Origin: Limnochorda sp. L945t
Lineage (GTDB): Bacteria > Bacillota > Limnochordia > Limnochordales > Geochordaceae
NCBI RefSeq assembly: GCF_035593305.1
Contig: NZ_CP141615.1
Location: forward strand, 1,550,001-1,614,000
Reading direction: 5' to 3'
Length of the DNA: 64,000 nt
This document shows positions 14,663-35,185 of this stretch, one piece after another. Within the stretch, counting starts at the first letter, position 1; the number at the start of each line of letters is the position of its first letter. The position numbers and the translations under genes are program-made. The notes below the pieces were generated by a model. That model saw only the letters and a list, made by a program, of their open reading frames with translations, made no database searches and was not told the DNA's origin.

Positions 14663-17600
14663 TCATGGGCTTGATCTCTCCAGAGGCTTGACGTGCAGCA
14701 CGCCATGGAGGTCGAGGAGCCTGCCCTTGGCGACGAGGCGGTCGATAGCCTCTGTGACGTGGTCGCGGGCCCGGGCCGAAATCCGGCTATACCCGAGCAC
14801 AGCCGAGGCGATGGCCCGAGCGGCGCGAGACCGTTCGGTGGCTCCGAGCTGACCCAGCACCTCGAGTACCGCCGCCTCCCACTCCTCCGCACAGATGTGC
14901 TCGGGCGGCCGCGCCACATCACCAGGCCCTCGAGGCGGAGCGCCCGAAGACTCCCGGTTCGCCTTCCACAAGAAGTCTCCCTGTTTGCTCACCCACCCCC
15001 GTCTGACCGCCCGGGAGACGGCTCGGGACAGGGCATCCCGGATCCGTTTGCCCGCCCTCGAATGACCGTAAAGGCCGCGCAGCCGCTCGTACAGCTGCTC
15101 TACGTGGACAGGCGCTTCGACCTCCACGACCTGGCGGGTCAGCTCCGCCAGGTCGTCGGGGTGTTCGTCCACGATGGCTGAGGCCCGGACCAGGTCCCGG
15201 CCACCCTGGTACGCCCGGTAAGCTGGCAACCGGACGACGGAATCAGGGGCGCCGCCGGCGCCTCGGCCCGCATCCCCGCTCGATCCGCCAGCCCCATCGC
15301 TGCTCGGCGCGCCACCTGTATCGCCGCTCCGCATAGCGTTTAGCGGCCGCCCGTCCTTGCCTTGCGCTGGCCCATCGTTGCGGTGCGCTGGCCTGTCGTC
15401 GCCCTGCGCCGACCCGTCGGCGCCGTACGCCGGCCTGTCGCCGCTCGCCCGGCCGTCATTGCCGTCGGCCCGCCCCTCGCCCCCGCGCACCCGCTCGATG
15501 GCCTCGACGAGGCGCTCGGTCGCCCTAGCCGGGTCGCGGATCCACCCCGTCGACCAGACCCGCAGGATCTTCCACCCCAGGTTCTCAAGGGCCACCTGCC
15601 GGATGCGGTCACGGTCTCGAGCCGTTCGCGCCGAGTGGTAGGTGGCCCCGTCGCACTCGATGCCGACGATGTAGCGCCCGGGCAAATCGGGGTCCCTCAC
15701 GGCCAGGTCAATGCGATAGCCCGACACCCCGACCTGGCAATCCACCTCATACCCCCGCCCCACCAGCGCGTCCCGCACGGCCTCCTCGAACTCGCTCTCC
15801 GGCTGCCCGGTGCCCCGCGCGTCTGCGTCGACCCCGCCGTCCTTCGCATAGCGCAGATACCCCGCCAGCATCTTCGGCCCGTCCCAGCGCGCCTGGCCGA
15901 CGACGCCCGCCAGCTGCTCTGGAGTCATCGACGAGACCACGATCATCCGATACCGCGCCCGGGTGATGGCGACGTTCAGCCGCCGGTCGCCCCCCATGCG
16001 GTTGAGCGGGCCGAAGTTGAGCGAAGGCGTCCCGCCTGGCTCAGAAGGCCCGTATCCGACGCTCAAGACGATGACGTCGCGCTCGTCCCCCTGAACCGTC
16101 TCCAGGTTCTTCACGAAGAACTCCTCTTTGTCGGGCAACTTCACCTGCGGGTGCGCCCTCAGCAGCCTGCGCAGCGCCTCCTCGACGGCGTCCCGCTGCT
16201 CGATGCTCATGGTGATGATCCCCAGCGACAACCCGCTCGTCGTCCGGCAGTGTTCGAGCACGAGTTGGGCGACCCGCTCGGCCTCGACCCGGTTGGTGCG
16301 AGACCCGCCCTTGCCGAAGACACCGTCCGGCACGTGCACGAAGGAAACCCCGGTCGCGACGCCGTCGGTCCCGGGAGCGGGGAACGTGATGAGCTGGCGG
16401 TCGTAGAAGTACCTGTTGGAGAACGCGATGAGGCGTTCGTCCCGACTGCGGTAGTGCCACTTGAGCATAGGCCCGGGGAAGTAGACGCTCGCGATGTCGA
16501 GAATGCTCTCATAGTCCTGGGCGTCCGGCTCGTCCTCCTCGCCCTCCGCGTGCGCCCGGAAGAAATCCGTCGGCGGCAGTTGCTTGTTGTCGCCGAAGAT
16601 CACCGCCTGCCCGCCTCGCAGCAACACGCCGACCGCATCGCCCGGCGGGAGCTGCGACGCCTCGTCGAAAATCACCAGGTCGAACCGGAAAAGCTCCTTC
16701 GGTAGGTACGTCGCCACGGACAGCGGGCTCATCATCAGACACGGCTTGACGGCCAGCAGGAGATTGGGGATGAGGGGGGAGAGTTTGCGCAGAGGCAGGT
16801 GACGGCGTTTCTTGTGCGCCTCCCGCGCGAGCACCGTCCGCTCGCTGGCCGGCAACGGGTCGGGCAGGCGGGCCGCAACCGCCTCGAACGTGGCGATCAC
16901 GGCCTGCTTTTGCAACTGTTCGTCGAGCTCTTGAAATCTCCGGCGAATCTCCTCCCAGGCATGCCCTGGAAACGAACGCAACACCTCGGACTCGCCGTAC
17001 GCGGCCCTCAACCACCGTGCGAAGTAGGCCCGCCGGAACCCATCGAACAGGCGCCCGGCCGACAGCCCCTTCGCGCGGCAGGCGGCGAAGAACGCCGACA
17101 GCCCCGCCTCCTCGGCCTTCCGCATCAGCCGCCGGTGTTCGATCCACTCCGGGAGGCGGCCGGCCTCCCGTTCCCATGTGGCGGCGTTGTCTCGCAGTTC
17201 GTCCAGGGAGACCTCCCCGAAAGAGCGCCCCCCGAAGCCCTCGGGAAAGCACCGGACGACGGGTTCGGCACCCGCCGCCGACCGCCACTCGTCCAGCGCC
17301 CTCAAGGCCGCTTCGATCAGCGAGGAGGCCGTCCGCCGGATGACCTGCGGCGCCTCGCGAACGAGCCGTTCGCGCAGGCGCTCGCTCAAGTGTCCCCCGC
17401 CTGCCTGCACCGTCGCGGCAGCCCACTCCACGGCGCGCACGGCCGCCTCAGGGTTCCAATCGTCCGTGCCGGGCTCGATGCCGAGCTCGCCGCGGATGCG
17501 CCCCGCGTGGGCGTCGATCCACGCACGACTCTCCTGCACGGCGAAAAGCGCCCGCACCACTCCGACCGCCTCTGAGCGCCGCAGCTTCCGCCCTATCAGG

Positions 17601-19570
17601 CGGGCGAGCCGCCGCTGCACCTTCCATTCGGCCATGACTCGCCGGAGCCAGGGGCGCTTCGAAACCTTCTCGAGGACGCTATGCAGCGCCCTCACCTCGC
17701 CGGCTTCGATGTCCGGCTCCTGGCCCGGCTCCCCGCCAGGATTCACGCCCACCCCCCGAAGGTAGGCCGCACCCTCCCTTCTCCGGCGAGCATGTTCCTC
17801 GACGCTTCGCGCGAACCCCACCATCGCCCGCCGCCCGGCCTCCTCAAGCATGAGCCAGGCCGGCTGAATGGTCGCATCGGGCATCCTGGCGAGCCCCCGC
17901 AGCAGCTCCAGGCGCTCCTCGAGGTGCCGCGCCGTCTCGACCCGCTCTCCCGTGAATTCGAAGACCGCGTTCGCCACCCCGAGCAGGCCCTCGGTCGCCC
18001 GCCTCAGAGCCCCGTACGCGGAGCTCACCGCCTCCGCAATAGGGATGAAGTCCTCCGGCGCCGCCGCCTCGCGCCAGGGGTGCGTGCGTTCCTCGTCCCA
18101 CACGCCGAGCCTCGCGACCTGGCGCACCAGCTCGAAGACCGCGTTCTCCCGGTCCCGCTCGACCTCGAGGGGCCGGTCGAACGGGAGCGGAGCGTCCACG
18201 AAGGGCACCTCGTGCAGCCGGGCCAGCGTCCCGTGCACCTGGAAGGCGCTGCGACCCTGCCGATCCCGAGGCTTGTGGAGTTCTTCGACGTACTGGTTGA
18301 GCTGAGCCCTGACCCGCCGGTATTCCTCGAACTCGTCCTTGTTGGCGCGGGTGCGCCAGGCCTTGAGCCGCGCCAGACTGGCCTGGAGCTCCTCCACCAC
18401 GGCCTTGCGGCTGGCCCGGCTGCTGTGCAGGTCGAGGCACAGGTCCGCCAGCCCGAGGCCTTGCAGGCGGGCGTAGACGACCTCGAGAGCCGCCCGCTTC
18501 TCGCTCACGAACAGCACCTTCCGCCCGTCCCGCAGCGCCTGCGCGATCAGGTTGAGGATGGTCTGGCTCTTGCCTGTGCCCGGCGGCCCCTGTACCACGA
18601 TGGTGCGGCCCTGGCGTGCCTGTTCCATCACCTCGAGCTGGCTCGAGTCGGCGTCCGCCACGGGGAAGACCTCGGGCCGGGCCGACTCCTCCTCGACCTT
18701 GCGGACGTCAACCGGCGCGAGTTCGGAGCGCTCGCGCAGCCCGCACAGCGCCGCCACCACCGGGTGTGCCGCGGCCCGCTCGGCGACGCCGGGCGCTTCC
18801 AGGTCCCGGTACATCGGGAGCTTGTAGAAGGCGAACTGCGCCAGCCACGCCTGCTCCAGCACGGCCCACCCCTTGGGCCGCACCGCCTCGCGTGCCTTGC
18901 CGAGGAACTGATCCATGGCGGCGCCCGGCTCGGCCGGCTCCCCGTTCGTGTCGAGAGCCGGCAGTGCGATGCCGAACTCCCGTTGCAGCCGGTACTCGAG
19001 GGTCGGGTTTACCTCCGGCCCGTCTTCGTGCGGGCGCAGGACGTAACGCTGTTCGGAGCGGTCCAAATGCACCGGAATCAGCAGGAGCGGGCTGTGGACC
19101 CTCTCTTCGGCGCTCTCCGTCTCCCTCCACTCCAGCATGCCGAGCGCGACGAAGAGCGTATGGACGCCCTGCTCTTCGTAGATGGTCCGCGTGTTTCGCC
19201 GCAGCCGCTGGAGCTTGCGGTGGAGATCCCGCACGTCCTTCGGGGTCGCCACGGGTGGAGCGAGCTCCAGGTCGCCAGGTACGGCCCGGACACCCGGCTC
19301 GACGGTCTCCCCGAGGTCGAGGTCCTCGATCGTGATGCCGCGGACGTACGGGAAAGCGAGCTGCCTCTCCTCGACGACGAGAGCTGCATAGAGGGCACTG
19401 AGCCCCGGGCTCGTGATCTGCACCCGGGTCGCAAAGCCCTTGTGGAAATCGATGAGGCGGTTTCGCCTCGACAGGTCGAGAAGAGAGCGCTTCCAATCCG
19501 CGATGTACCGCCCGGCCTGCTGTATCGCCCGCTGGTCGATGGTCGCCCCTTCGGTCACCTGCTGCGTCAT
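14663..19570 (-). CDS. Giant SF1 helicase-nuclease (DUF4011 / Dna2-NAM7-like / Vsr-fold nuclease / DUF3320)
   Basis: 1635 residues from ATG 19570 (MTQQVTEGATIDQRAIQQ); upstream ATG 19609 is less likely. Domains in order: DUF4011 N-terminus (DWKRSLLDLSRRNRLIDF), Walker A QGPPGTGKSQTI (~330), long helical insertion, Walker B DEASQLPPGDA (~970), GDNKQLPP, HYRSRDERL (~1042), motif VI LNVAITRARYRM, then a PD-(D/E)XK/Vsr-type nuclease (YRIDLAV...VGIECDGATYHS, ~1295-1325). A repetitive linker and a DUF3320 winged-helix end follow. All helicase and nuclease residues look intact. Known relatives lie in bacterial defence islands; DNA unwinding and cutting of foreign DNA is the likely role. It is preceded by an HsdR-N-like gene 42 bases upstream. 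Confidence 0.9.
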   Translation of the reverse strand: MTQQVTEGATIDQRAIQQAGRYIADWKRSLLDLSRRNRLIDFHKGFATRVQITSPGLSALYAALVVEERQLAFPYVRGITIEDLDLGETVEPGVRAVPGDLELAPPVATPKDVRDLHRKLQRLRRNTRTIYEEQGVHTLFVALGMLEWRETESAEERVHSPLLLIPVHLDRSEQRYVLRPHEDGPEVNPTLEYRLQREFGIALPALDTNGEPAEPGAAMDQFLGKAREAVRPKGWAVLEQAWLAQFAFYKLPMYRDLEAPGVAERAAAHPVVAALCGLRERSELAPVDVRKVEEESARPEVFPVADADSSQLEVMEQARQGRTIVVQGPPGTGKSQTILNLIAQALRDGRKVLFVSEKRAALEVVYARLQGLGLADLCLDLHSSRASRKAVVEELQASLARLKAWRTRANKDEFEEYRRVRAQLNQYVEELHKPRDRQGRSAFQVHGTLARLHEVPFVDAPLPFDRPLEVERDRENAVFELVRQVARLGVWDEERTHPWREAAAPEDFIPIAEAVSSAYGALRRATEGLLGVANAVFEFTGERVETARHLEERLELLRGLARMPDATIQPAWLMLEEAGRRAMVGFARSVEEHARRRREGAAYLRGVGVNPGGEPGQEPDIEAGEVRALHSVLEKVSKRPWLRRVMAEWKVQRRLARLIGRKLRRSEAVGVVRALFAVQESRAWIDAHAGRIRGELGIEPGTDDWNPEAAVRAVEWAAATVQAGGGHLSERLRERLVREAPQVIRRTASSLIEAALRALDEWRSAAGAEPVVRCFPEGFGGRSFGEVSLDELRDNAATWEREAGRLPEWIEHRRLMRKAEEAGLSAFFAACRAKGLSAGRLFDGFRRAYFARWLRAAYGESEVLRSFPGHAWEEIRRRFQELDEQLQKQAVIATFEAVAARLPDPLPASERTVLAREAHKKRRHLPLRKLSPLIPNLLLAVKPCLMMSPLSVATYLPKELFRFDLVIFDEASQLPPGDAVGVLLRGGQAVIFGDNKQLPPTDFFRAHAEGEEDEPDAQDYESILDIASVYFPGPMLKWHYRSRDERLIAFSNRYFYDRQLITFPAPGTDGVATGVSFVHVPDGVFGKGGSRTNRVEAERVAQLVLEHCRTTSGLSLGIITMSIEQRDAVEEALRRLLRAHPQVKLPDKEEFFVKNLETVQGDERDVIVLSVGYGPSEPGGTPSLNFGPLNRMGGDRRLNVAITRARYRMIVVSSMTPEQLAGVVGQARWDGPKMLAGYLRYAKDGGVDADARGTGQPESEFEEAVRDALVGRGYEVDCQVGVSGYRIDLAVRDPDLPGRYIVGIECDGATYHSARTARDRDRIRQVALENLGWKILRVWSTGWIRDPARATERLVEAIERVRGGEGRADGNDGRASGDRPAYGADGSAQGDDRPAHRNDGPAQGKDGRPLNAMRSGDTGGAPSSDGAGGSSGDAGRGAGGAPDSVVRLPAYRAYQGGRDLVRASAIVDEHPDDLAELTRQVVEVEAPVHVEQLYERLRGLYGHSRAGKRIRDALSRAVSRAVRRGWVSKQGDFLWKANRESSGAPPRGPGDVARPPEHICAEEWEAAVLEVLGQLGATERSRAARAIASAVLGYSRISARARDHVTEAIDRLVAKGRLLDLHGVLHVKPLERSSP
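15345..15475 (-). repeat. Imperfect tandem 21-24 bp repeat encoding a hydrophilic linker
   Basis: About five to six units of the type CTGGCC-GTCGTCGCCCTGCG repeat within the helicase-nuclease gene. They encode degenerate (G/N)DGPA-like peptides (GDRPAYGADGSAQGDDRPAH and following) between the nuclease and DUF3320 domains. The repeat keeps the frame. Unit number could vary between strains and change linker length. It is not a CRISPR: there are no unique spacers. Confidence 0.6.
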
Positions 19571-19612
19571 GCGTACTTCACGGCCCCTCCGCGCCCCCCG
19601 TGTATGCACGGG

Positions 19613-21110: not shown

Positions 21111-23408
21111 TCACTCCGCTATATCTACAGCTCGGTGGAACTCAAGCGCCCGCGTTGCGAATGAACGAAGCTCTGCATCGGTCGTCTGGACGTTCATGCC
21201 GGCCGATCCGTGGTGGAACCGGCAGGCGTATGCGTCGATATCCTCCAACTCCCCTATCCTGGGTTGAAGTCGTACTAAAGGCGACGGCTCCCGCGCGTTG
21301 CGGATCTTCCTAATCATTTCCCCAAGCGTATCATCCATGGTAAACTCATCCGGGAACCGAAATCGGAGGCTATTCTCAAGCAATGGTCGAATACATGAGG
21401 CGACCGAGTTCAGGTCAACCCCCTCTTCCCCATCTAGATAATCCTTCAAGACGAAGAACTCCCGGAGCGGTGGCCGTTGAGATTCGCTCGCGATGTCCCA
21501 CGGGGCGATAGTCGTACCGTCTCCGTGTCTTGGCAAGCGCAGCGCACGTACATCGCACGACCGTCGTCTAGCTGCTTTCCAAACCTGAGCCAGAAAATAG
21601 CGATCATGGGACAGTAGCACTAGCTGGCGACACCTCTCGGCGATTCTTACAACCTCTTGGACTGTTTGTGTCTGCCGACCATCATCCAAGCTTGACAGAG
21701 GATCGTCCAGTACGATGATCCTGTCTGCTACAGATGGATCGCCGTCCATCCGGGCCAAGAAAAAGGCGAAGGCCAGTGCCGTCCGGTCTCCACTACTCAG
21801 CGTGCTGCGGAAGCAAGGACGAGGTGACCTCCGACCGGTATCCTCCAATCCCACACGGTAACCATTGATGTCAAGTTCATAGTCAAGCCGCGCCGTTCCT
21901 CCATAATGAGTCTCTCTTACTTCTGCAAGCCGAAACGACGCACCGAATCTAGCCAGCACTCGGTTTATGGCATCACCATAATCTCTAAGCAAGCGGGCAC
22001 TGAGTTCTTCAAGCATCTGACGGGTTTTGTTCTTGTCGTGTTCTAGTTCGTTCTTTTCTTCGAGGAGCTTGTTATACGCTTCGCATAGTTCGCGAACGTC
22101 TTGGCTAAACCGCGTCCGAGCATTGCGGAGAAGATTCAACCTGTGCTCCACGTCCGTCGACGAGGTGGCCCGTAGCTCCCGCCTTTTCTCAAGTATCGCC
22201 TCGTTGGCCCTATCGACCGCCTCATTGTAAAGCCTCACCTGGTCCACCAGCGCCCTGTACTCCTTGAGCGGTGACATCTCGTCCGACCCCAGAGTCACTA
22301 CTTCCACCGGTGCTTGCGACTTTCGCCTAATCAAGTCCTGCACGTATTCTCGGAGATCAGCAAGGATGCGGGTGGCCCATTCCGAATCGAACTGCGGCAG
22401 ATCAACTTTCACATGTTGGCGCCAGAAGTGCGAAATCCTCTCGTTCTCAAGTACGGTACTTCGAAGGCCGGAGAGTTGTGGCTCAGCAAGGACGTTACCG
22501 ACCGTTTCCCCCGCGGCTGCCACTTGCCTTTTGAAGTTGGAGTAGGCTGTGGCAAAGTAGGCCTTATACGCTTCAATGAGACTGACTCCTTCCAAGTCTT
22601 GCCCGCAAAACGGGCAGCAGTTCTCTCGAATGTAGTCCATCCCTTGGGCAATCCAGCTTTCACCTCTGTGGTCCATGCACCGCCTTATGTGTTCCTTTAC
22701 CTCCCGCTCAGCCTCTGCCGAAATACCTGTAAGTGTTGTCGCAAGCGTAACAGACAGCTCGTTAAGGTCAAGAGTCGGCAGGACAATGCGGCGAAAAGAA
22801 GAGGCATTCAATACCTGTTGGATGCCTCGCAACGACTCCAACAGTTGCTGTAGACTTGCTATCTGCTGATCGACCTGTTCCACGGGTTGAAGGTTCACGA
22901 ACTCGTCAACGTTCATGTCTCCGTCTATGTAACGCTGGATCGCTTCGCGAAGCTGCCTCAACTCTGTGTTCTTAGCGGTAATCTCCTTAGAAAGCTCATC
23001 CAGTTGCCTTGCCACAATGACGGCCTGATCCCCTACGGCAAAGCGATGCAGATTCAGCCGATGTTCCGGCTCCACTGCCTGGCCAGAGTAAACATTCTCC
23101 GCGACAAATGTTTCGTCAAAGATTTCGAGAGGAACGCCATCCACTGACCATCGACCATTGTCATAGCTGACAGTGTTCCCAGATATTCGAATCCGAACCA
23201 GCGGTGGTAGGCTACTACCTAACCTCCGTCTTTCTTCGATATACCTAGGAGCATTTCGTTGAAGAGAACGGAGAATCGCAGCCAAAGTGCTCTTGCCACT
23301 AGCGTTACTACCATGGATCAAAGTGAGCTTGCGGAATTGCACGTCTCCATACGCTTCGTAGTTTTGGAATCGCCCTACACTTCTAATGTGAACGATCTTC
23401 TCAATCAT
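21111..23408 (-). CDS. RloC/PrrC-like AAA_13 ATPase with zinc-hook CxxC
   Basis: 765 residues. Walker A GSNASGKST (~34-42), long coiled coils interrupted by CCPFCGQ (~268, a Rad50/RloC-type zinc hook), ABC signature LSSGDRTALAFAF (~540), Walker B RIIVLDDPLSSLDD (~565) and H-loop LLSHDRYF (~600). This is the AAA_13 architecture of RloC/PrrC anticodon nucleases and related anti-phage ATPases. The C-terminal ~130 residues end in ELEDIDAYACRFHHGSA. I do not see a clear anticodon-nuclease triad, so the effector activity is unproven. Its AT-richer composition suggests horizontal transfer. It is monocistronic here. Confidence 0.85.
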   Translation of the reverse strand: MIEKIVHIRSVGRFQNYEAYGDVQFRKLTLIHGSNASGKSTLAAILRSLQRNAPRYIEERRRLGSSLPPLVRIRISGNTVSYDNGRWSVDGVPLEIFDETFVAENVYSGQAVEPEHRLNLHRFAVGDQAVIVARQLDELSKEITAKNTELRQLREAIQRYIDGDMNVDEFVNLQPVEQVDQQIASLQQLLESLRGIQQVLNASSFRRIVLPTLDLNELSVTLATTLTGISAEAEREVKEHIRRCMDHRGESWIAQGMDYIRENCCPFCGQDLEGVSLIEAYKAYFATAYSNFKRQVAAAGETVGNVLAEPQLSGLRSTVLENERISHFWRQHVKVDLPQFDSEWATRILADLREYVQDLIRRKSQAPVEVVTLGSDEMSPLKEYRALVDQVRLYNEAVDRANEAILEKRRELRATSSTDVEHRLNLLRNARTRFSQDVRELCEAYNKLLEEKNELEHDKNKTRQMLEELSARLLRDYGDAINRVLARFGASFRLAEVRETHYGGTARLDYELDINGYRVGLEDTGRRSPRPCFRSTLSSGDRTALAFAFFLARMDGDPSVADRIIVLDDPLSSLDDGRQTQTVQEVVRIAERCRQLVLLSHDRYFLAQVWKAARRRSCDVRALRLPRHGDGTTIAPWDIASESQRPPLREFFVLKDYLDGEEGVDLNSVASCIRPLLENSLRFRFPDEFTMDDTLGEMIRKIRNAREPSPLVRLQPRIGELEDIDAYACRFHHGSAGMNVQTTDAELRSFATRALEFHRAVDIAE

Positions 23409-25300: not shown

Positions 25301-25930
25301 TCACCCGCCCCCGCCGGGCCAGTCCAGGTGGAGGCGAGGAAGCCGCGCGAGTTGTTCTAACCTATACTCCCATGCGCGGCGGGCAAAACCCGGAACGACG
25401 TACGTCGTTTCCTTCCCCTCGAAGGCCTTGTAGAGAAGCCCCACCGAGATCAGTTCCTCGAAGGCCTCCGGCAGGAGGTCCTCCGAGAAGAGAATCCGGT
25501 GAGCCACGGCAAAGCCGCCTCCGTCGTATACCTCCCCCTTTCGCACGCTCCCTTCCCGAAGCAGCAGAAACGCCAGTTGCCGGCCCGGCCGGCTCAAGTC
25601 GGCGCATCTGGCCTCCACAGCTTCCTGAAGCCCCGCCAAATGCGCCTCGCAGGCCCACTTCACCACGTCCCGGCAGGGTTCCTGAGTATCGGTGGTCTTG
25701 TCCCAGACGACGGCATTTTGTGCATCCAACGCCCCGATGCGCCCGAGAACCTCGACGGCCTCCTTCAAGCTCTCCGCCGCTTCGACCGGCGGATACCGCA
25801 GACGCAGGTTCGCCTTCGCAATCCGCTCGTCTGCGCAAAGGCTCAGCATATACAGCGCTTCCACTACCGACGGGCGCTGCCCCGAAGCGCAGCTCCGCAC
25901 CGCCTCCTCGAGTTCAGCTCGACTCGGCAT
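25301..25930 (-). CDS. Small partner protein of the sacsin-like ATPase, winged-helix-like
   Basis: 209 residues; its start overlaps the end of the sacsin-like/DUF3883 gene by 17 bases, so they form an operon. It is helical throughout, with a C-terminal part (QLAFLLLREGSVRKGEVYDG, then AHRILFSEDLLPEAFEELIS and VGLLYKAFEGKETTYVVPGF) that looks like a winged helix. No enzyme motif. It may regulate or guide the ATPase. The upstream gene is now broken, so this gene may be expressed without its partner or only from the IS. Confidence 0.7.
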   Translation of the reverse strand: MPSRAELEEAVRSCASGQRPSVVEALYMLSLCADERIAKANLRLRYPPVEAAESLKEAVEVLGRIGALDAQNAVVWDKTTDTQEPCRDVVKWACEAHLAGLQEAVEARCADLSRPGRQLAFLLLREGSVRKGEVYDGGGFAVAHRILFSEDLLPEAFEELISVGLLYKAFEGKETTYVVPGFARRAWEYRLEQLARLPRLHLDWPGGGG

Positions 25931-28246
25931 GGCCTGCGTCCCCCTCTTCCTCCAGCGAGACGTAGCGGTCTTCCACCAGCCCCCGCCACTCGGCGTACCG
26001 GAAGGTCGGTTCGGGCAGCAACCCGAGCAGTTTCGGCCCGCGCAGCACGTACAGGACGGGGTGGCTCAGGGCGTCGGCCACGACGTACACGTAGTGGGCC
26101 TCGTCGGACAGCGCCTGATACTGGGTTCGGGTCAGGTCGATGGGCGGGTCAGGCCGGGAGCGCCCCTTGAGCTCGATGCGCCGCCCGCCCGACTCGAAGT
26201 CGTACCCCCGCTCCTGCGAACGGGGCACCCGCTCCGGCTGCCGCCCCCGGCTACGCTCGTAGCGCACCAGCACCGCCTCCGCGACCCGTTCGGCGAACGC
26301 CTCCCGCAGCCGCTCATCCTCCAGCCGCCGGTTCACCCCCAGGGCCTGGAAGAACCGCCGCCACTCGGACACCTCCCCGCCGCCCCCCGCCGCCAGGTAC
26401 GCCTCCGACAGCAGCGGCATCGCCTCCGGCTCCACCCGCAGCAGCCCCCGGGCCGCCAGCGCCTCCAGCCGGTGTTCCGGCGCATACGCCTCGCCGAAGA
26501 ACACCTCCCGCGGCGATCGCCAGCGGCCGTCCCGGCACCTCACCGTCAGGAACCCCAGCCGCCCCCCATCCAGCACGCCCTCGCGCCACAGCCGGAACAA
26601 CCGCCCCGTCCACTCCACTCGCTCCGACTCCGGCATGGTCGCCCACGCCTGGGCCACCTGGTCCAGGGAGTCCCCGAGCTGCCACTCCCGCACCTGCTGC
26701 GCCGTCAGCACCCGGCACCCCAGAAACTCCAGAAATCCGGCGCACTCCGGGTCGGCCCAAAGGCCGGGGTGCACCCGCCGCCGGCCGCGCAGTGCCGGCG
26801 GCCCGTGCTCAGCCCAGTAGGCCGCCGACGCCGACACCAGCGACCCGTCCTCCGTGAGCACCAGGCGGGCCGAAAACCACGGGGCGCTCCGGATGGTACC
26901 CTCCGAGTACCGCCCCAGCTCCCGGTACAGCGCCCGGAACAACTCCACGTCCTGCTCCTTGGCCCGTGCCTCCACGAGCTGCTCCATCGCCCACGGCCAG
27001 TTGCGGCTGTTGACGAAGGGCCCTTCCATGACGGGTACGGGCGGCAGCAGCGTGAGCCGGTGAAGCGCCCGCTTGCCGGGAAATGCCGCCTCGAGCCTCT
27101 CCACCCCCAGCACCTGCAGCCACCCCGCATCCCAGTTGGGGATGCGCATGGCCTGCGCCGCCGTTACCAAGGAACCATCGGCTGAAACCAGCAGCGGCCG
27201 CTCCTCCACGTACCGCCTGAGGGGCCTGAGAAGTTCGTCGTTGATCACGTGCGGCCCGCCCGCCCCCGGGTACAGCATCGCCGCCGCAGCGTACCGCCAC
27301 CGCTGGTGCTCCAGCAGCGCCGGCGCCACCCGCTCGGCAATGAAGCGGAAAAGCTCGCCCGCCATCCAGCGGTTCCACCGCGCATCGCGCCGCAGGCTCT
27401 CCCGACCGGGGCCGGTCAGGAAGTCCCCGTGCACCAGGAACGAAAGCCCGCTGGGCACCTCCTTGAGCGGAAGAAACGAAAAGACCCCCGTGTGAGCCGT
27501 TCCGTGCACGGGCCGGAGCTGGCCCGTCTCGTCCAGCGCGAACGCCACCGCAATCTCCCGGGCGCTGACCTCGTGACGCTCCCACTGCCGGGTCTCCGGA
27601 TCGGAGCGCACCGCCTCCGGCACCCGCACCGTGGCACGAAAGACCACCCACCGTTCCCGGCTCGCATCCCCGTCGCGCTCCTCCTGGATCTCATATTGCT
27701 CGTAGAGGCCGGGCCCGGCTTCTCCAGGCTCTGCCCGCCGTCTCCGAACCACCCGCCGAGCGCCCCTCAAGCGGTCTTGCAGGACAAGTTCCTCCACGTG
27801 CCGCAAAAAGAGAAGCACCCGGCCCGACAGGCTGTCCGGTTTCATTTCTTCTGCGAGGCGCGCCGCAACGTCGGCCCGATTCCCCTCCCGGAAAGGAAGC
27901 TCGAAAAACGTGGTGTACGAGGAGAGCTCCTTCGTCCACTCCGGCGCCCGCTCCAGCCAGACGGGCGTGATTTGCCAGGGAACCTTCTCCGGCTGCGGCC
28001 AGTACTGGCGGTCGAAGGCAAACCGATAGCACCCCGACACGATGCGAGGGCTGTCGCAGAACAGGAACACCGACTTGCACCCGACGCCGAGATACCCGAT
28101 GTAGTCGGTCGCTTTCTTGCCCGACCGCCCGACCCGGCAGATGCTTTCCACGTCCGCTTCGGAAAACGGTGCGCCGTCGTTGGCGATGCGAACGGCATCG
28201 CGAGCCAGTTCCACCAGCACCGACTTCGACCCGGCGTCGTCGGCGT
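25914..28246 (-). pseudogene. Sacsin-like GHKL ATPase with DUF3883 domain, 3' portion (copy 1, interrupted)
   Basis: Reading from the IS21 junction: DDAGSKSVLVEL, DGAPFSEADVESICRVG and KKATDYIGYLGVGCKSVF form a Hsp90/sacsin-type GHKL ATPase (N-box, G1, G2). A ~500-residue middle region follows, and the end contains GGRRIELKGRSRPDPPIDLT then YQALSDEAHYVYVV, a DUF3883 module. Joining this to the 5' piece at 34884-35051 and removing one GGCGT repeat restores a clean 831-residue frame. Such proteins are found in restriction-like and phage-defence islands. Activity is unknown; the insertion removes the first ~56 residues, including most of the N-box. Confidence 0.85.
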
Positions 28247-28320
28247 TGTCAATGGCCACTTGAAAAACCGCACTTTTGGCCACGAAAATTCCGCAATCGT
28301 GGCCAGGTAGGTAGCGGGAT

Positions 28321-28814
28321 CTACGCGGGGGTCCCTCCCTCCCCTCTGCCCCCCGCCCGTAGGGCGGGGGCCGCCGGCGCCTCTTCCCGTATGTTGCTGG
28401 GTTGGGGCGGCACCAGCCGGCTGCGCATCCGATAGCTCTCGCCCTTGAGGGTGATGACGTGGGCGTGATGCAACAGCCGGTCGAGCACCGCCGCCGCGGT
28501 GGCCGGCTGTCGAACAGCGCTCCCCACTCCTGGAACTCCAGGTTGCTGGTCACGATGAGCGAGCGCCGCTCGTACGCTTTGGCCACCAGTTGAAACAGGT
28601 AGTCCGAGGCGGTGGCGTCCATCTTCAGATAGCCCAACTCGTCCAGGATGATGAGATCGTGGGCCAGGATGGCCTTCAGCTTCTGGGCCGTGCTGCCGTC
28701 GGCCAGCGTCGCATAAAGCTCCTGGACCAGGTCCTGCACCGTTAGGAAGAGCACCCGGTAGCCGCGGTTGACCGCCTCGATGCCCAGGCCGATCGCCAGG
28801 TGGCTCTTGCCGAC
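28321..28814 (-). pseudogene. istB: istB C-terminal portion, frameshifted
   Basis: Continues IstB from VGKSHLAIGLGIEAVNRGYR through the Walker B IILDELGYL to NLEFQEWGALFDS. A one-base loss in a C run near 28505 then shifts the frame; the true tail (TAAAVLDRLLHHAHVITLKG and ESYRMRSRL) continues in the next frame to the stop at 28321. Because of the slip, the shifted frame runs through the IS end straight into the sacsin-like gene, producing a misleading 1029-codon fusion frame (25914-29003). Confidence 0.88.
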
Positions 28815-28855
28815 CACCGGCAAGACAGCGTTATACTGCTCACTCCACCAAGACG

Positions 28856-29121
28856 GTGGTGATCCACTACCCGTGGCATCCGCTGCACGGACGGACTCTG
28901 GAAGTCGTGCAGGAGCGGGGCCGAGGGGAGAGGCGTCACGTCGGCGTGCGCCTTCCCGACGGGACCACCTGCTTGCTTCCCGAGTGGATGACCGACCCGG
29001 CACGATGTGCGGCTTTCCGTCGAGTCGACCACCCGGTCTGTTCGCTGGAGGCGCTCCAGCGGCTGCACACGTTGTTGACGTCGCTTCGGTGGTGGCAGGA
29101 AGTCTGTGTTGCCGCGTCGGA
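28856..29121 (+). pseudogene. DUF5372-like accessory protein, interrupted by IS256
   Basis: From GTG 28856 (or the next GTG) the frame reads VIHYPWHPLHGRTLEVV, then HVGVRLPDGTTCLLPEWMTD. This is the DUF5372 pattern found beside many large serine recombinases (beta-rich ~90 residues). The frame is cut by the IS256 copy after codon ~88; its last codons would continue at 30594. The function is unknown, perhaps binding element ends or regulating excision. Confidence 0.7.
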
Positions 29122-30584
29122 GACGTTGTCCCAGGTTATGTGGAATTTGAATAGCGCCTCCGGGATCCTTTTTTCAACCGGTAGCGAGTACAGGCTCGCT
29201 CATGGCCACTTCGGCTCCGATGGCTCGGCGCAGAGCGGCCTGAAGCATGGGGATCAGGCGGTAGCCGCGAATCCGCCGAAAGCGGGATTCAGCCGCCAGA
29301 AGCCCTATCCCCACCCACCGCTCGGCGTGCTGACCAGAACGCCAGCGCTTCACCCGCCCCGCCTTGGCGCGCACCACCGACAGCGCCGACTCCACCGTGT
29401 TGGTGGAGGCCAGCGACAGCCGCAGCAGGCCCGGGATGCCCAGCCGGTGCAGCGTCAGGGTTTCGTCCAACCCCTCCCGCAGGCTGTCCGCTGCCCCCGG
29501 GTGCTCCACCTCGAGCCGGTCGGCCAGGCGCTCCAGGGCCTCCCTGGCGACGCTGTAGTCCGGCTCCCCGTAGGCCTGGTCCAGCTTGCGGGCCACCCAG
29601 GCCTTCGCCGACTCCGGCAGGTGGTCCAGCACGTTCGCCTTCTTATGGACCTGACACCGCTGGACGAGGGCCTGCTTTCCGAAGACGGCTCGGACGGCGG
29701 CCCGCAAGGCCTTGGCCCCGTCCATCACCACCAACAGCCCCTGATCGGAGGACAGACCCCGCTCAACCAGGTCTTGCAGCAGTCCCTTGACCACCGCTTC
29801 GTTTTCCGTCGCCCCTTCCCGCAAGCCCAACAGCCGCTTGCGCCCGTCGGCATCGATGCCCAAGGCCACCACCACCGAGGAGTCGCCCACCCGCACCCCA
29901 TCGACGACCAAGGCGACGATGGACCCCTGATCGAGCCGCTGGGTCAGGCGCTCCTCCAGCAGCCGACCCATGGTCTGGGTGAAGCGGGCACTGATCCGGC
30001 TTCGGGAGACCCCCTTACCCGGGAGCGCGTCGGTCCCGTCCAGCGTCTCCCGATAGCCCCGGGTCGACACCCCGTGGAGCAGCCGGGCCACCACCGCTTC
30101 GGTCAGGCTGTCCTCCTGCTGGGCCCACAGGTAGGTGTCGAGCACCACCTCCTGGCGGTCTTTGGAGCGGGCCCGAGGACGCTGGACGCTCACCTTGCGG
30201 CCCAGCACCACCACCCAGCCCTTTGCCTGGCCATGGCGGTAGGCGGGACGCTCCCGGCGATGCCGCCCCTTGGGTCCGACCCGCTCGGCCAGCTCGGCTT
30301 CCATCATCTCCCCGAGGGCCGCAACAGCCAGCTGCAGCACCAGCGCCGTCAGGCCCCCCTTCACCTGCTCCCCCAGCCGGCGCAGGGGAAGCTGGATGCT
30401 TTCGGGCAAAAACGGTACCTTTCGAGCCTTCCGGCGGTCGACCTTCTGAACCTTCCCATTCGGGCTGACCACGTGATATGCTGGCATCGGCGGCTCCTCC
30501 CATCCGCTGGGTTTTGCCAGCCCCTCTTCTACCACAGGGGCCCCGGAGCCGCCACTTCATTTTCCACAAACCTCGGGACAATCT
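29122..30584 (-). mobile_element. IS256-family insertion sequence
   Basis: 1463 bases, flanked by the 9-bp direct repeat CGCGTCGGA (29113-29121 and 30585-30593). The terminal inverted repeats run TTGTCCCAGGTTATGTGGAA at the left against TTGTCCCGAGGTTTGTGGAA (reverse complement) at the right. It contains one intact transposase gene. The clean repeats and intact gene make it the youngest insertion of the nest and possibly still mobile. Confidence 0.92.
29174..30487 (-). CDS. IS256-family (Mutator-type) transposase
   Basis: 437 residues from ATG 30487, which has a GGAGGA ribosome site just upstream; the frame is open to 30535. DDE residues: Asp in ALVVDGVRVGDSS (~190), Asp in LLVVMDGAKALRAA (~255), the CxxH box QRCQVHKKANVLDHLPE, and Glu in ASTNTVESALSVVRAKAGR (~368). 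The C-terminal RRIRGYR region binds DNA in this family. It cuts and pastes its own element. No truncation seen. Confidence 0.95.
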   Translation of the reverse strand: MPAYHVVSPNGKVQKVDRRKARKVPFLPESIQLPLRRLGEQVKGGLTALVLQLAVAALGEMMEAELAERVGPKGRHRRERPAYRHGQAKGWVVVLGRKVSVQRPRARSKDRQEVVLDTYLWAQQEDSLTEAVVARLLHGVSTRGYRETLDGTDALPGKGVSRSRISARFTQTMGRLLEERLTQRLDQGSIVALVVDGVRVGDSSVVVALGIDADGRKRLLGLREGATENEAVVKGLLQDLVERGLSSDQGLLVVMDGAKALRAAVRAVFGKQALVQRCQVHKKANVLDHLPESAKAWVARKLDQAYGEPDYSVAREALERLADRLEVEHPGAADSLREGLDETLTLHRLGIPGLLRLSLASTNTVESALSVVRAKAGRVKRWRSGQHAERWVGIGLLAAESRFRRIRGYRLIPMLQAALRRAIGAEVAMSEPVLATG

Positions 30585-30622
30585 CGCGTCGGAAGGTGGC
30601 GCCCGGCAAGGAGGATCGACAG

Positions 30623-30811
30623 ATGTCGGGCCCCGCTCGGCAACAGCCTCTCCCGTTCGAGGACCATCGGGTATGGGATCAACTTCCTCCTCCGGTGCGG
30701 GAACGCGTGGTCGAACTGGTCGCAGAGCTTCTGGTGGCCTTCCCGCTTTGCCCGGCTCCGGGCCTCGAGGAGGTGAGCTCCCATGACGGCCCCGTCCAAG
30801 CTGACCCCTGA
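30623..30811 (+). CDS. Small conserved-context protein upstream of the serine recombinase
   Basis: 62 residues, with AAGGAGG eight bases before the ATG. Sequence pattern MSGPARQQPLPFEDHRVWDQ, then LPPPVRERVVELVAELLVAF. It overlaps the recombinase start by 29 bases, so the two are coupled. Short proteins of this type precede many recombinases of the class; the LPP-RE-VVELVAELL helix may be a recombination directionality factor or helper. Not otherwise recognised. Confidence 0.65.
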   Translation: MSGPARQQPLPFEDHRVWDQLPPPVRERVVELVAELLVAFPLCPAPGLEEVSSHDGPVQADP

Positions 30812-32879
30812 GCACCTCGCCCGGCGCGCGGTGGTCTACGTCCGCCAGTCCACCCTGGAGCAGGTACGCTTCCACCGCGAAAGCCAACGCCGCCAGTACG
30901 AGCTGGCCGAGCGGGCTCGGGCTATGGGGTTTAGGGACGTGGAGGTGATCGACGAGGACCTCGGCCGCTCCGGTACCACCGCAGCAGGGCGTCCCGGTTT
31001 CCAAAGGTTGGTGGCCGCGGTCTGTTTGCGGGAGGTGGGTGCGGTCTTCAGCCTGGAAGCGTCACGGCTGGCCCGTAACAACCGGGACTGGTACCACCTC
31101 GTGGATCTGTGCGGGCTCACCGGAACCCTCCTGGTCGACCTGGACGGGGTCTATGACCCCCGGCTTCTCAACGACCGCCTGCTGCTCGGGTTGAAGGGCA
31201 CCATGAGCGAGTTTGAGCTCGCCCTCTTTCGGCAGCGGGCGTTGGCGGCCTTGCAGGCCATGGCCGAGCGGGGGGAGCTTCTCACCACGGTCCCCGTTGG
31301 CTACGTGCGGACGGCAGACAATCGGTGCGAAAAGGACCCGGACCGGCGGGTCCAGCACGCCATCGCGCTGGTCTTTACGAAGTTCCAGGAGTACGGGAGC
31401 ATCCGCCAGGTCTTGTTGTGGTTCCGGCAGGAGGGGCTGCCGCTCCCAAGGAAACGCTTCGGCCCGGAGGGATGGATCACCGAGTGGGTGTTGCCGATCT
31501 ATCACACGCTGCACCACATCCTGACCAACCCCACGTACGCAGGGGCGTATGCGTTCGGCCGCACGGCGACCCACACTCAAGTAGTCCAAGGGGACGCCGT
31601 GAGACAGCGCAGCCGGCGGTTACGGGCTGAAGAGTGGGCGGTGCTCATTCGGGACCATCATGAGGGGTACATCTCCTGGGAGGCGTTTGAGCGGAACCAG
31701 GCCATGATCGAACAAAACGCCGCCCGTTATGGAGCCCGCGTCCGAGGCCCCGCCCGGGAGGGGTCGAGCCTCCTGGCGGGGTTGTTGCGTTGCGGGCGCT
31801 GCGGGCGCAAGCTGCAGGTCACCTACTCCGGTACGCGTGGCAACGTGCCGCGCTACCACTGCCGGGGTGCTGCTATCAACCATGGTACGGATTGGTGCAT
31901 CTCGTTCGGCGGCCTCGCGGTCGATCGGGGCATGGAGCAGGCGATCCTTCGGGTCCTCGAGCCGGCTGCTCTGGAGGCGGCCGTACGGGCAGAGGCTCAC
32001 CAGGAAGCAGCCCGGAAGGCCCGCCGCCAGGCGCTGGAGCTGGCGTTGCAGCAGGCTGAGTACGAGGCGCAGCGGGTGCAGCGGCAGTACGACGCCGTGG
32101 AGCCGGAAAACCGCCTCGTCGCTGCCGAGCTGGAGCGGCGATGGAACGAGGCACTGGCCAGGGTCGATGCGTTACGCCGCCAAGTCGAGGTGGCCCGATA
32201 CGAGGAAGGGAAGACTGCGGACAACGGGATCGCCGAGAAGCTGGCTTCGCTGGCTCAGGACCTCCCGCGGGTATGGGCCGATCCTCGCTGCGATGCGCGG
32301 TTGAAGAAGCGGATTGTCCGGACCCTCGTCGAGGAAATCGTGGCCGACGTGGACGCGCAGCGCAGTGTGGTCCGCCTCGTCGTTCACTGGGCCGGAGGGG
32401 CCCACAGTGAACTGGAGGTGCGCAAACCCCGAACCGGGCAGCATCGGTACCGAACCGATCAGCATGTCGTCGAACTGGTACGGCAACTGGCGTGGGTGAT
32501 ACCCGACCGGCAGATCGCGCGCGTCCTCAACCTCCTCGGCCACCGAACAGGGCACGGCAATACCTGGACCCAGGCCCGGGTGACGTCCTTGCGGGACAGC
32601 CATGGCATCCCGTGCTTCGATCCCAAGCACCGCGAGGGATGGGTAACGCTGACGCAGGCGGCCCAGGCGCTGGGCGTCAGCCCCATGTCCGTGCGCCGCT
32701 TGCTGGCCAGCGGCGCCTTGAAAGGCCAGCAGGTGGTGTCGTACGCACCCTGGCTGATCCGACGGGACGAGTTGCAACGCGCCGAGGTGAAGGAGGCGAT
32801 CCAGGCCATCCGAAAGCGGAGGCGAGCTCCGCTACCTGAGCATCCGACCCAGCAGACCCTTGATTTGACGCGGAAATAG
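30783..32879 (+). CDS. Large serine recombinase with zinc ribbon and C-terminal HTH
   Basis: 698 residues. The catalytic N-terminal domain has VYVRQSTLEQV (nucleophile Ser ~23) and SLEASRLARNNRDW; a recombinase domain (NPTYAGAYAFGRT) and zinc ribbon LLRCGRCGRKLQV...YHC follow. A coiled coil spans ~400-470. The unusual C-terminal ~100 residues include a MerR-like helix-turn-helix (TLTQAAQALGVSPMSVRRLL). It integrates and excises its element by double-strand exchange, without host ligase or replication. It probably recognises the P-loop codons of istB as attachment site (inference). Confidence 0.93.
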   Translation: MTAPSKLTPEHLARRAVVYVRQSTLEQVRFHRESQRRQYELAERARAMGFRDVEVIDEDLGRSGTTAAGRPGFQRLVAAVCLREVGAVFSLEASRLARNNRDWYHLVDLCGLTGTLLVDLDGVYDPRLLNDRLLLGLKGTMSEFELALFRQRALAALQAMAERGELLTTVPVGYVRTADNRCEKDPDRRVQHAIALVFTKFQEYGSIRQVLLWFRQEGLPLPRKRFGPEGWITEWVLPIYHTLHHILTNPTYAGAYAFGRTATHTQVVQGDAVRQRSRRLRAEEWAVLIRDHHEGYISWEAFERNQAMIEQNAARYGARVRGPAREGSSLLAGLLRCGRCGRKLQVTYSGTRGNVPRYHCRGAAINHGTDWCISFGGLAVDRGMEQAILRVLEPAALEAAVRAEAHQEAARKARRQALELALQQAEYEAQRVQRQYDAVEPENRLVAAELERRWNEALARVDALRRQVEVARYEEGKTADNGIAEKLASLAQDLPRVWADPRCDARLKKRIVRTLVEEIVADVDAQRSVVRLVVHWAGGAHSELEVRKPRTGQHRYRTDQHVVELVRQLAWVIPDRQIARVLNLLGHRTGHGNTWTQARVTSLRDSHGIPCFDPKHREGWVTLTQAAQALGVSPMSVRRLLASGALKGQQVVSYAPWLIRRDELQRAEVKEAIQAIRKRRRAPLPEHPTQQTLDLTRK

Positions 32880-32905
32880 CGAGGTGGGCATTATGTCGCG
32901 GGATC

Positions 32906-33250
32906 GGGGGGTCCGAGAAGGACGAGCGACTCATGCGCCTCCACGAACTGCAGCGTGGCCAGGTCCCGGATGGTCTGGGCGCTCACCGACGTCTGGAAGG
33001 AGAAGTCGAAGCTGTCCAGCGTGCGCAGCATGGGAAAGCGGGCCGCCTTCAGGCGCTTGTCCCGCTGGGTGGCCTCTCGGGCCTCGACCTCGGCGTCGAC
33101 CAGGTAGCCCAGGAAGTCGAGGTACGAGGGCTCTTCCTGCAACGCCAGCTCGCTGACCGCGTCCAGCATCTCCCGGATGCGGCGCAGCTTCAAGCGCTTG
33201 AGGCCCTGCTCGAGGCGGGCCCGGTCGGCGGGCGCGATGGTGCGAATCAT
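32906..33250 (-). pseudogene. istB: istB N-terminal portion, cut at Walker A
   Basis: ATG 33250 overlaps the istA stop as ATGA. 115 codons encode the N-terminal helical domain (LKRLKLRRIREMLDAVSELA) up to LVLLGPP, where the recombinase element begins. Translation would run a few codons into the element and stop. IstB is the AAA+ helper of IS21 transposition; without its ATP site this part is inactive. Confidence 0.9.
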
Positions 33251-34791
33251 CGGGCCACCTCCTGGTAATAGGTCAAGTCCCGGCGCTCCACCTCGACCCG
33301 ATAAGGCAGGACGACGTGGCCCTGGGCCGCTGGCTTGGCCGGCTGCGGCAGGCTCGCGGGCGTCTTCTGCAGCCGCTCGACCAGGCGCTTGAGGATGCCG
33401 TAGCCGTACGCCTCGAAGTGAATGGCCCGCTGCATGGCCTGCTCCAGCACGTCGGAGGGGCAGCTTTCGGCCAGCGTCACGATGCGCTCCATCTGCTCCC
33501 GCAAATGCCCGCTCCAGGAGCGGCTGAGACCCTCCAGGTACGTGCGGGCACTGGGGGCCAAGGCCTCAAAGCGGGCCTGAAGGGGATGGGCCGGTTGACG
33601 ACGGGTTTGGTGCTGCGGGTCATGGTCGTCCCGAATCATGACGCGACCCCGTCCGGGGACGAGATCGATCCGGTCGACCACCTGGCCGTCCTCCAGGATC
33701 TCGATGTGGTCCTCGAATCGCCGGTAGCTCACGGGCCGGCGGGCAAAGCGGGCCGGCACCGAGTACCGGTTTCCCTCGATGGAGATGAGGTTGGTGCGGG
33801 TGGCTTTCCGCTGCTCCAGGATGCCCTGCGGGGCGCTCACCTCCAGCGGCTTGAGGTGGGGCGCCTCCTGCGCCAGCCGATCCCACGGCACCGCTCCGGT
33901 CGTGGCGTGTACGCGGGCGTTGGCCACCTCGTCCATCCAGGCCCGGACCTGGCGGTTGAGGTCGGCCAGATCCGTGAACTCCCGGCCGTAGAAAAAGCCC
34001 CGGCGCACGTACTTGACCATGGACTCGACTTTGCCCTTCGACTCGGGGTCGTGGCCCCAGCAGGCCCTCGGCGCAAAGCCGTACAGGGCCGCCAGCTGCA
34101 AGAGTTCCCGCTGGTAGCGGACGACCCCGCCGACCCGTTCCGCCACCACGGTCTTCGCGTTATCGAAGAGCAGGGTGCGAGGCACCCCGCCGATGTACTG
34201 GAAGGCCCGGTGCAAACACCCCGCCAGCGTGGCCATGGACAGCGACGTGATGAACTCCACGTCGATCACCCGCGACCACGCCAGCGTCAGGATGAAGGCG
34301 TACAGCCGCACCCGAGCCCCCTCGACCACGAGGGTTCCGAAGTGGCCCCAGTCCACCTGGGCCTGCTCGCCGGGCAGCGTCTCGATGGGCTTGTACTCCC
34401 GGACTGGGTGCGGCCGGATCGCAGCCACGAACCGGCGCACCGTACGGCGGGACCCCGTATAGCCCTGCTGGCGGATCTCTTGGTAGAGCCGTTCCGCCGT
34501 CAGCTCGGGCCAACGGGCCAGCCGGGCCGTGATATACTCGGCGTAGCGGTCGATCTTGCGGGCCCGCTGGCGGTAGCGGGGAGGCTCCGCGGGGAGCGCG
34601 GGACCTTGCCAGTACTTGGCCACGCTGTCCCGGTGGATGCCGAGGCGTTCGGCCACCTGAACCTTCTTGAACCCTTCGTCACGCAAGTGCCGCAACGGGA
34701 TCACCAACTCCTGTCCAACCAGGTTTGCTCGCTCCTTCGCCGGATCCGTCTGGGTGGTGCCCCAGCGGAGCCGATACGGGGGAGCGGGCAT
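33247..34791 (-). CDS. istA: IstA, IS21-family DDE transposase
   Basis: 514 residues from ATG 34791, with an AGGTAGGGG ribosome site; the frame is open to 34854. N-terminal HTH (KKVQVAERLGIHRDSVAKYW), then the RNase H-fold core with Asp in AQVDWGHFG (~147), Asp in LLFDNAKTV (~210) and Glu in SKGKVESMVKYV (~255), and the beta-barrel with NRYSVPARFARRPV. All three catalytic acids are present. It would need a working IstB, supplied from elsewhere, to transpose. Confidence 0.94.
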   Translation of the reverse strand: MPAPPYRLRWGTTQTDPAKERANLVGQELVIPLRHLRDEGFKKVQVAERLGIHRDSVAKYWQGPALPAEPPRYRQRARKIDRYAEYITARLARWPELTAERLYQEIRQQGYTGSRRTVRRFVAAIRPHPVREYKPIETLPGEQAQVDWGHFGTLVVEGARVRLYAFILTLAWSRVIDVEFITSLSMATLAGCLHRAFQYIGGVPRTLLFDNAKTVVAERVGGVVRYQRELLQLAALYGFAPRACWGHDPESKGKVESMVKYVRRGFFYGREFTDLADLNRQVRAWMDEVANARVHATTGAVPWDRLAQEAPHLKPLEVSAPQGILEQRKATRTNLISIEGNRYSVPARFARRPVSYRRFEDHIEILEDGQVVDRIDLVPGRGRVMIRDDHDPQHQTRRQPAHPLQARFEALAPSARTYLEGLSRSWSGHLREQMERIVTLAESCPSDVLEQAMQRAIHFEAYGYGILKRLVERLQKTPASLPQPAKPAAQGHVVLPYRVEVERRDLTYYQEVAR

Positions 34792-34883
34792 TTCCCCTAC
34801 CTGGCCGGATGTGCGGCTTTTTTGTGGCCATTCATGCCGGTTTTTCGTGGCCACTTATGCCGATTTTAACGTGGCCACGGACA

Positions 34884-35051
34884 GGCGTTCTGCAGGAACT
34901 CCATCAGGAAGTGCCCGGTCTGAGGAAACATCATGGTCACGCGCTCGATCGCCCCCGCCAGCGCATCCTTCAGATCATCGGACCCTTCCTGCCTGGCGCG
35001 TGCAAGGCGCTCGATGTGCCGTCGGGCCGCCTCTTCCAAGCCATCCGCCAC
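34884..35051 (-). pseudogene. Sacsin-like ATPase, 5' portion (copy 1)
   Basis: GTG 35051 has a GAAGGGGGTG ribosome site. Fifty-six codons (ARRHIERLARARQEGSDDLK, then GAIERVTMMFPQTGHFLMEF and LQNA) reach the IS21 target repeat in the middle of QNADDA, the Asn-containing N-box that holds Mg-ATP in GHKL ATPases. The remaining 775 codons continue at 28241. Upstream (35052-35185) has no gene and probably held the promoter. Confidence 0.85.
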
Positions 35052-35185
35052 GGCGCTTCTACACCCCCTTCCGCGGATGCGGCCCGTGCTCCGGCTGGCG
35101 TTGTACACCCTGTAGTGACACTTCAAACGCACAAAGGGCGACATGACGGGATCCGAAAGGGTTGAGGTGGACAAAGCGGTTGTAT

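What the first reader, a model, noticed from the sequence alone, without database searches (positions are those of the whole stretch)
25301..28246. Candidate undescribed two-gene system: sacsin-like/DUF3883 ATPase plus 209-residue winged-helix-like partner
The partner gene overlaps the ATPase end by 17 bases, and the locus sits in an island with CBASS, an AAA_13 ATPase and a helicase-nuclease. A second, older copy of the ATPase lies 10 kb away. Repeated acquisition and inactivation is typical of defence or selfish modules. I do not know a named system with this pair.
Basis: inference. Interest (0 to 1): 0.72.

Follow-up and report, generated by a model that had tools for sequence, protein, structure and literature searches.

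The report
Broken Tiamat-like nuclease with winged-helix partner
This is a gene pair (an Hsp90/sacsin-type ATPase joined to a predicted DNA-cutting domain, plus a small winged-helix protein) that recurs in bacteria and haloarchaea and looks like a two-gene relative of the Tiamat phage-defence protein, but in this genome the ATPase gene has been split by a transposon and is probably dead.

Summary
The two genes, the 17-base overlap, the defence island and the degenerate second copy are real. The ATPase is broken. A 6.6-kb IS21-family element (28247-34883, 5-bp target duplication GGCGT), carrying nested elements, splits it; its N-terminus lies at 34884-35091. A full-length ATPase (about 820 residues) with the partner occurs in a relative (G002). 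The ATPase is a sacsin-type GHKL+transducer module followed by a NOV_C (DUF3883) domain with a conserved D...ExK motif. It is homologous to the N-terminal half of TmtA (Tiamat), so it is not wholly unnamed. The partner matches no library; its C-terminal half is predicted to be a winged helix. It is homologous at profile level (score 40.5 against a shuffle maximum of 21.3) to a haloarchaeal protein encoded directly upstream of the same kind of ATPase in Halorussus, so the pair recurs in two domains of life. It is not obligatory: other short ATPases have other neighbours or none, and two haloarchaeal partner homologues have no such ATPase beside them. Best reading: an ATP-gated clamp nuclease acting in defence, with a DNA-binding accessory protein. 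Nuclease activity, defence and the partner's role are inferred. New variant of a known kind.

The parts
25301..25930 (-). 209-residue partner: helical N-terminal half, predicted winged helix at about residues 100-198
   Evidence: ORF; 91% and 86% identical homologues in G001 and G002; model and fold match; dN/dS 0.16-0.23; no hit in Pfam, PADLOC, NCBIfam or PHROGs
25914..28246 (-). 3' part of the ATPase-nuclease gene (from residue 53-56 to the end): truncated sacsin-type GHKL, transducer, helical middle, NOV_C D...ExK domain
28247..34883 (.). IS21-family element inserted in the ATPase gene: ends TGTCAATGG / CCACGGACA, target duplication GGCGT at 28242-28246 and 34884-34888; carries nested elements
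29174..30535 (-). transposase of an IS256-type element nested in the IS21 element (type named from sequence resemblance; not scanned)
   Evidence: ORF; fragment repeated at 38108-38316
30783..32879 (+). large serine recombinase nested in the IS21 element
   Evidence: Resolvase, Recombinase and Zn-ribbon Pfam hits
33247..34854 (-). istA transposase of the IS21 element; the istB N-terminus follows at 32891-33250 and an istB C-terminal remnant lies inside ORF 25914-29003
34884..35091 (-). 5' part of the same ATPase gene (residues 6-56; 90% identical to G002)
38312..38931 (-). second, degenerate ATPase copy: residues 1-109 joined to 516-572 by an internal deletion, then an IS256-type fragment; no partner gene
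14663..19609 (-). island context: DUF4011/AAA_11-AAA_12/MTES_1575 helicase-nuclease (PDC-S37; ProA-like, below the NCBIfam cutoff)
21111..23408 (-). island context: AAA_13 protein, PDC-S06
35992..37799 (-). island context: CBASS S-4TM effector and cyclase

Best explanation
The pair is an inactivated copy of a two-gene, restriction-like defence module. Its core is a short relative of the Tiamat protein TmtA: a sacsin-type GHKL ATPase with a transducer domain that is thought to close as an ATP-gated dimeric clamp and to license a C-terminal NOV_C (PD-(D/E)XK-like) nuclease on invading DNA. The small partner is most likely a winged-helix DNA-binding accessory that helps the clamp recognise or engage DNA; a regulatory role is the main alternative. 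Shown here: domain homology, active-site motifs, coupled gene arrangement, recurrence of the pair in bacteria and archaea, defence surroundings, and IS21 disruption in this genome. Inferred: nuclease activity, phage restriction, physical interaction, and the partner's role.
For: Sacsin SR1 is the top structural match (Z 14.1, 26% identity, 174 aligned), with topo VI-B, GyrB and Hsp90 matched over residues 24-374. ATP-site motifs ExxxNADD, NDG and GxxGxGFKS, and a C-terminal D...ExK, are conserved in the intact homologues whose motifs were recovered. Homology to PADLOC TmtA: E=2e-74 for G002; the Halosimplex and Halorussus relatives align over 5-698 and 21-733. 17-bp overlap in G000 and G001; in-frame fusion in G002; 4-bp overlap in Halorussus. 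Partner-family homology: hhalign E=1.3e-5, score 40.5 against a maximum of 21.3 in 200 shuffles. Winged helix Z up to 10.7. Defence neighbours in G001, Halosimplex, G682 and G771. Precedent for a GHKL plus PD-(D/E)xK defence protein needing both activities: VcSduA (PMC12137116).
Against: No activity data. The partner family is beside the ATPase in only two independent lineages. Halosimplex/Halobellus/G682 ATPases have an unrelated small gene upstream, P0009-type ATPases lie by DUF1156/DUF499 or other genes, and the Geoglobus ATPase has no partner homologue found. Two haloarchaeal partner homologues have no such ATPase beside them. Partner model pLDDT 68.6 and fused model 64.3 are moderate, and the fused model gives no reliable interface. 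The G002 fusion could be an assembly or frameshift artefact (about 800 contigs).
Confidence: 0.5

Rival explanations
1. The partner is a transcriptional autoregulator (BrxR/CapW-like in role) of a one-gene Tiamat-like defence system; the ATPase alone does the work.
For: Winged helix with MarR/SarA/CodY/TubR-type matches. The ATPase occurs elsewhere without the partner. The partner is intact in G000 and G001, where the ATPase is broken. Partner homologues occur without the ATPase.
Against: Overlapping co-directional genes (17 bp, 4 bp) and a natural in-frame fusion in G002 suggest stoichiometric co-production. In L048 and L049 the homologue lies tail-to-tail with its neighbouring operon, unusual for a regulator.
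Confidence: 0.3
2. A toxin-antitoxin-like selfish pair: one protein poisons the cell and the other restrains it.
For: Two overlapping genes, patchy distribution, repeated decay, and two copies that do not come from a recent local duplication.
Against: The partner survives with the ATPase broken in two genomes, the ATPase persists without the partner, and neither protein resembles a known toxin family.
Confidence: 0.08
3. The ATPase is a chaperone-like sacsin relative with a housekeeping or stress role; its place in the island is incidental.
For: Sacsin and Hsp90 are the nearest solved structures.
Against: Sporadic distribution (matches in 18 of 398 phylum genomes, most of them partial), plasmid carriage, defence neighbours, decay by insertion sequences, and a conserved nuclease motif.
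Confidence: 0.07

Closest known systems
Tiamat (TmtA), PADLOC-DB
   Same: Sacsin/GHKL N-terminus and middle region homologous: PDLC03972 matched over residues 12-353 (G002), 5-698 (Halosimplex) and 21-733 (Halorussus); one TmtA model also matches the NOV_C end of the Halorussus protein.
   Different: 822 residues against TmtA models of 1063-1782; only about a quarter of the best model is covered by the G002 protein; a separate winged-helix partner is present.
VcSduA / Shedu type I-D (paraMORC3), PMC12137116 and PMC2292703
   Same: GHKL ATPase plus transducer ahead of a PD-(D/E)xK-type nuclease; works-like model.
   Different: The nuclease is NOV_C, not DUF4263; the ATPase is sacsin-type; it has a partner gene.
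Prokaryotic DUF3883/NOV_C proteins (DUF3883 predicted to be a REase domain, PMC3710099)
   Same: C-terminal NOV_C with D...ExK.
   Different: The described example is a DUF3883 fusion to an SNF2 helicase in R-M operons; here it is fused to a GHKL ATPase.
Halosimplex/Halobellus ATPase with upstream P0005-type gene
   Same: Full-length ATPase homologue, 38-39% identical.
   Different: The overlapping small gene is unrelated to the winged-helix partner.

Membership tests
Tiamat (TmtA) | sequence homology to TmtA models | tested here: met
   PDLC03972 E=2.3e-74 for the G002 protein, 2e-105 for the Halosimplex relative
Tiamat (TmtA) | full-length TmtA architecture (models 1063-1782 aa) covered | tested here: not met
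   G002 protein is 822 aa; best model covered at 6-333 of 1302 only
Tiamat (TmtA) | single-gene system (from memory) | tested here: not met
   overlapping partner gene in the window's relatives and in Halorussus; other short ATPases do lack it
Tiamat (TmtA) | anti-phage activity | not testable with these tools
   needs a phage challenge
Shedu type I-D (VcSduA) | GHKL ATPase N-terminus | tested here: met
Shedu type I-D (VcSduA) | DUF4263 nuclease domain | tested here: not met
   Pfam reports NOV_C at the C-terminus and no DUF4263 at E<=1
Sacsin-type GHKL ATPase | sacsin N-terminal ATP-binding domain above curated cutoff | tested here: met
   Pfam SACS 58.1 bits (cutoff 32.8), NCBIfam P_loop_sacsin 81.6 (cutoff 50) in the G002 protein
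Sacsin-type GHKL ATPase | intact ATP-site in the window copy | tested here: not met
   N-box glutamate replaced by IS-derived sequence and GFKS changed to GCKS; gene split
NOV_C (DUF3883) predicted nuclease | NOV_C match and D...ExK motif | tested here: met
   23.8 bits (cutoff 22.1) in the G002 protein; DFESGGRRIELKGR
Winged-helix DNA-binding protein (partner) | winged-helix fold | tested here: met
   residues 100-198 match winged helices, Z 8-10.7, rmsd mostly 2.1-3.4; model confidence moderate
Winged-helix DNA-binding protein (partner) | binds DNA | not testable with these tools
   needs a binding assay

The most novel reading that the evidence does not exclude
A new class of two-component immune nuclease shared by bacteria and haloarchaea, in which a winged-helix protein finds or licenses foreign DNA for an Hsp90/sacsin-type ATP-driven clamp that carries its own NOV_C nuclease, with exchangeable small partners giving different specificities.
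Probability: 0.25. Interest if true: 0.65.

Novelty: new variant of a known kind. Interest (0 to 1): 0.42.

Why it matters
A short (about 820-residue), compact relative that keeps the ATPase, transducer and nuclease, and that repeatedly sits beside small, exchangeable partners, would be a tractable system for asking how sacsin/Hsp90-type ATPases act in immunity and whether the small genes set specificity. It also suggests that annotation by the long TmtA models may miss shorter members with partners.

Tried and rejected
Partner as a known family: no hit in Pfam, PADLOC, NCBIfam, PHROGs, or by profile in PDB sequences. Direct BLASTP of the partner against the Halorussus protein is insignificant; homology appeared only at profile level and was checked against 200 column shuffles, reversal and five unrelated controls. 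The Halosimplex upstream gene as a partner homologue was rejected. A single-protein scan of genome contigs found no partner; an alignment scan found 9 ATPase loci. Viral-contig scans found nothing. Recent local duplication as the source of the second copy was rejected. A tree of ATPases did not resolve whether the window-type and Halorussus ATPases are sisters, so shared ancestry of the pairing cannot be told from independent pairing. The fused model (mean pLDDT 64; partner part mostly under 50) gave no usable ATPase-partner interface. The dN/dS contrast between the partner and the ATPase remnant in G001 rests on few sites and is only suggestive.

Full report
Observation. The window lies in a single-contig 3.31-Mb genome; the window is 65% GC. 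On the minus strand the ATPase ORF (stop at 25914) overlaps a 209-codon ORF (start 25930) by 17 bases. Pfam finds IstB, SACS and NOV_C in the long ORF and nothing in the short one.

The ATPase is broken. The ORF before codon 28246 is an istB remnant. A tblastn with the full-length homologue of relative G002 places residues 53-820 at 28253-25950 and residues 6-56 at 35036-34884. Between them lies an IS21-family element, 28247-34883, with ends TGTCAATGG and CCACGGACA and a 5-bp direct repeat GGCGT on both sides. It contains a serine recombinase gene and an apparent IS256-type transposase. The window copy lacks the glutamate of the GHKL N-box (VAIDNADD for MEFLQNADD) and has GCKS for GFKS, so it is almost certainly non-functional.

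Second copy. 38312-38931 holds residues 1-109 joined to 516-572, followed by an IS256-type fragment. Copy 1 to copy 2 is 83-87% identical in DNA, and each is 87-92% identical to G002, so the two did not arise by recent local duplication. This agrees with repeated acquisition or old paralogy.

Relatives. In 101 related genomes only three carry the partner: G000, G001 (91%) and G002 (86%). G001 is syntenic with the window: the helicase region is 94% identical and the partner region 91.5%. It keeps the partner but only the C-terminus of the ATPase. G002 has a full-length ATPase, and a small length difference near its 3' end puts ATPase and partner in one reading frame; G002 is a draft of about 800 contigs, so this may be an artefact. 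Partner dN/dS is 0.16-0.23, against 0.63-1.0 for the G001 ATPase remnant (few sites).

What the ATPase is. The G002 protein scores above curated cutoffs for SACS, sacsin P-loop and NOV_C. Its model (pLDDT 64) matches sacsin SR1 best (Z 14.1, rmsd 3.5, 174 aligned) and topo VI-B, GyrB and Hsp90 over residues 24-374, that is, GHKL plus transducer. The NOV_C end has D...ExK, as do the intact short relatives whose motif was recovered; DUF3883 has been proposed as a restriction-endonuclease domain (PMC3710099). PADLOC calls it TmtA-like (Tiamat), but only the N-terminal half of TmtA is covered. The works-like precedent is VcSduA, in which a GHKL ATPase and a PD-(D/E)xK nuclease are both required for phage restriction (PMC12137116), itself a paraMORC3-type protein (PMC2292703).

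What the partner is. AlphaFold2 (pLDDT 68.6, six sequences) gives a helical N-terminal half and a winged helix at about 100-198. No family library matches it. In Halorussus pelagicus a 214-residue protein lies immediately upstream of a sacsin/NOV_C ATPase with a 4-base overlap. The two small families align over about 150 columns (hhalign E=1.3e-5). The score of 40.5 stands far above 200 column shuffles (mean 12.5, maximum 21.3), the reversed profile and five unrelated families. The partner-ATPase pairing is therefore found in two distant lineages, in opposite gene orders.

Limits of the pairing. Halosimplex, Halobellus and G682 carry the ATPase with an unrelated overlapping or adjacent small gene. 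Haloarcula CBA1115 and G771 carry it beside a DUF1156 methyltransferase gene, with DUF499 also in Haloarcula. Geoglobus carries it with no partner homologue found. Partner homologues in G638 and G746 have no ATPase beside them. A profile search over all loci held found no further adjacent cases. The tree of ATPases cannot place Halorussus. Sampling was limited: about half of GTDB species held, and of these only about 1900 genomes searched; no metagenome scan.

Context. CBASS, PDC-S06 and a PDC-S37/ProA-like helicase surround the window pair. G001 has a NERD-helicase and a GmrSD_N protein nearby; Halosimplex an SMC-type ATPase and a metallophosphoesterase nuclease; G682 a type I R subunit. This supports, but does not prove, a defence role.

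Verdict. An ordinary fate (insertional inactivation in a decaying defence island) has befallen an interesting module: a short Tiamat-like ATPase-nuclease with a previously unclassified winged-helix partner. Defence function, nuclease activity and the partner's role are inference.

Noticed in passing
L031:8486-11415, L034:6486-9415, L086:7339-10364: In three haloarchaea the short sacsin/NOV_C ATPase is preceded by a conserved 165-residue gene (P0005 type, no Pfam hit); in two it overlaps the ATPase and lies next to an SMC-type ATPase and an Mre11-like exonuclease. A second candidate two-gene module.
   Followed up: partly
L048:5336-10630 and L049:4697-9568: Haloarchaeal homologues of the partner lie tail-to-tail with an operon of 370- and 618-residue genes (plus an AAA+ gene in L048); the L048 370- and 618-residue proteins match nothing in Pfam or PADLOC.
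   Followed up: partly
window 14663-20563: DUF4011/MTES_1575 helicase-nuclease related to ProA and Hhe but below the NCBIfam cutoff for ProA (1234 against 1500 bits), followed by an unassigned 316-residue gene (19613-20563); the region is conserved at 94% DNA identity in G001.
   Followed up: partly
window 24028-24693: 221-residue ORF between the AAA_13 gene and the partner with no match in Pfam, PADLOC, NCBIfam or PHROGs.
   Followed up: partly
L008:12062-12211: A second fragment of the partner gene (about residues 1-55, 65% identical) near the intact one in G001: a further decayed copy of the module.
   Followed up: no
window 28247-34883: IS21-family element with its istB gene interrupted by a large serine recombinase gene and an IS256-type transposase: nested insertions.
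   Followed up: partly
L009:2673-5744: In-frame fusion of ATPase and partner (1023 codons) in draft genome G002, caused by a small length difference at the junction.
   Followed up: partly
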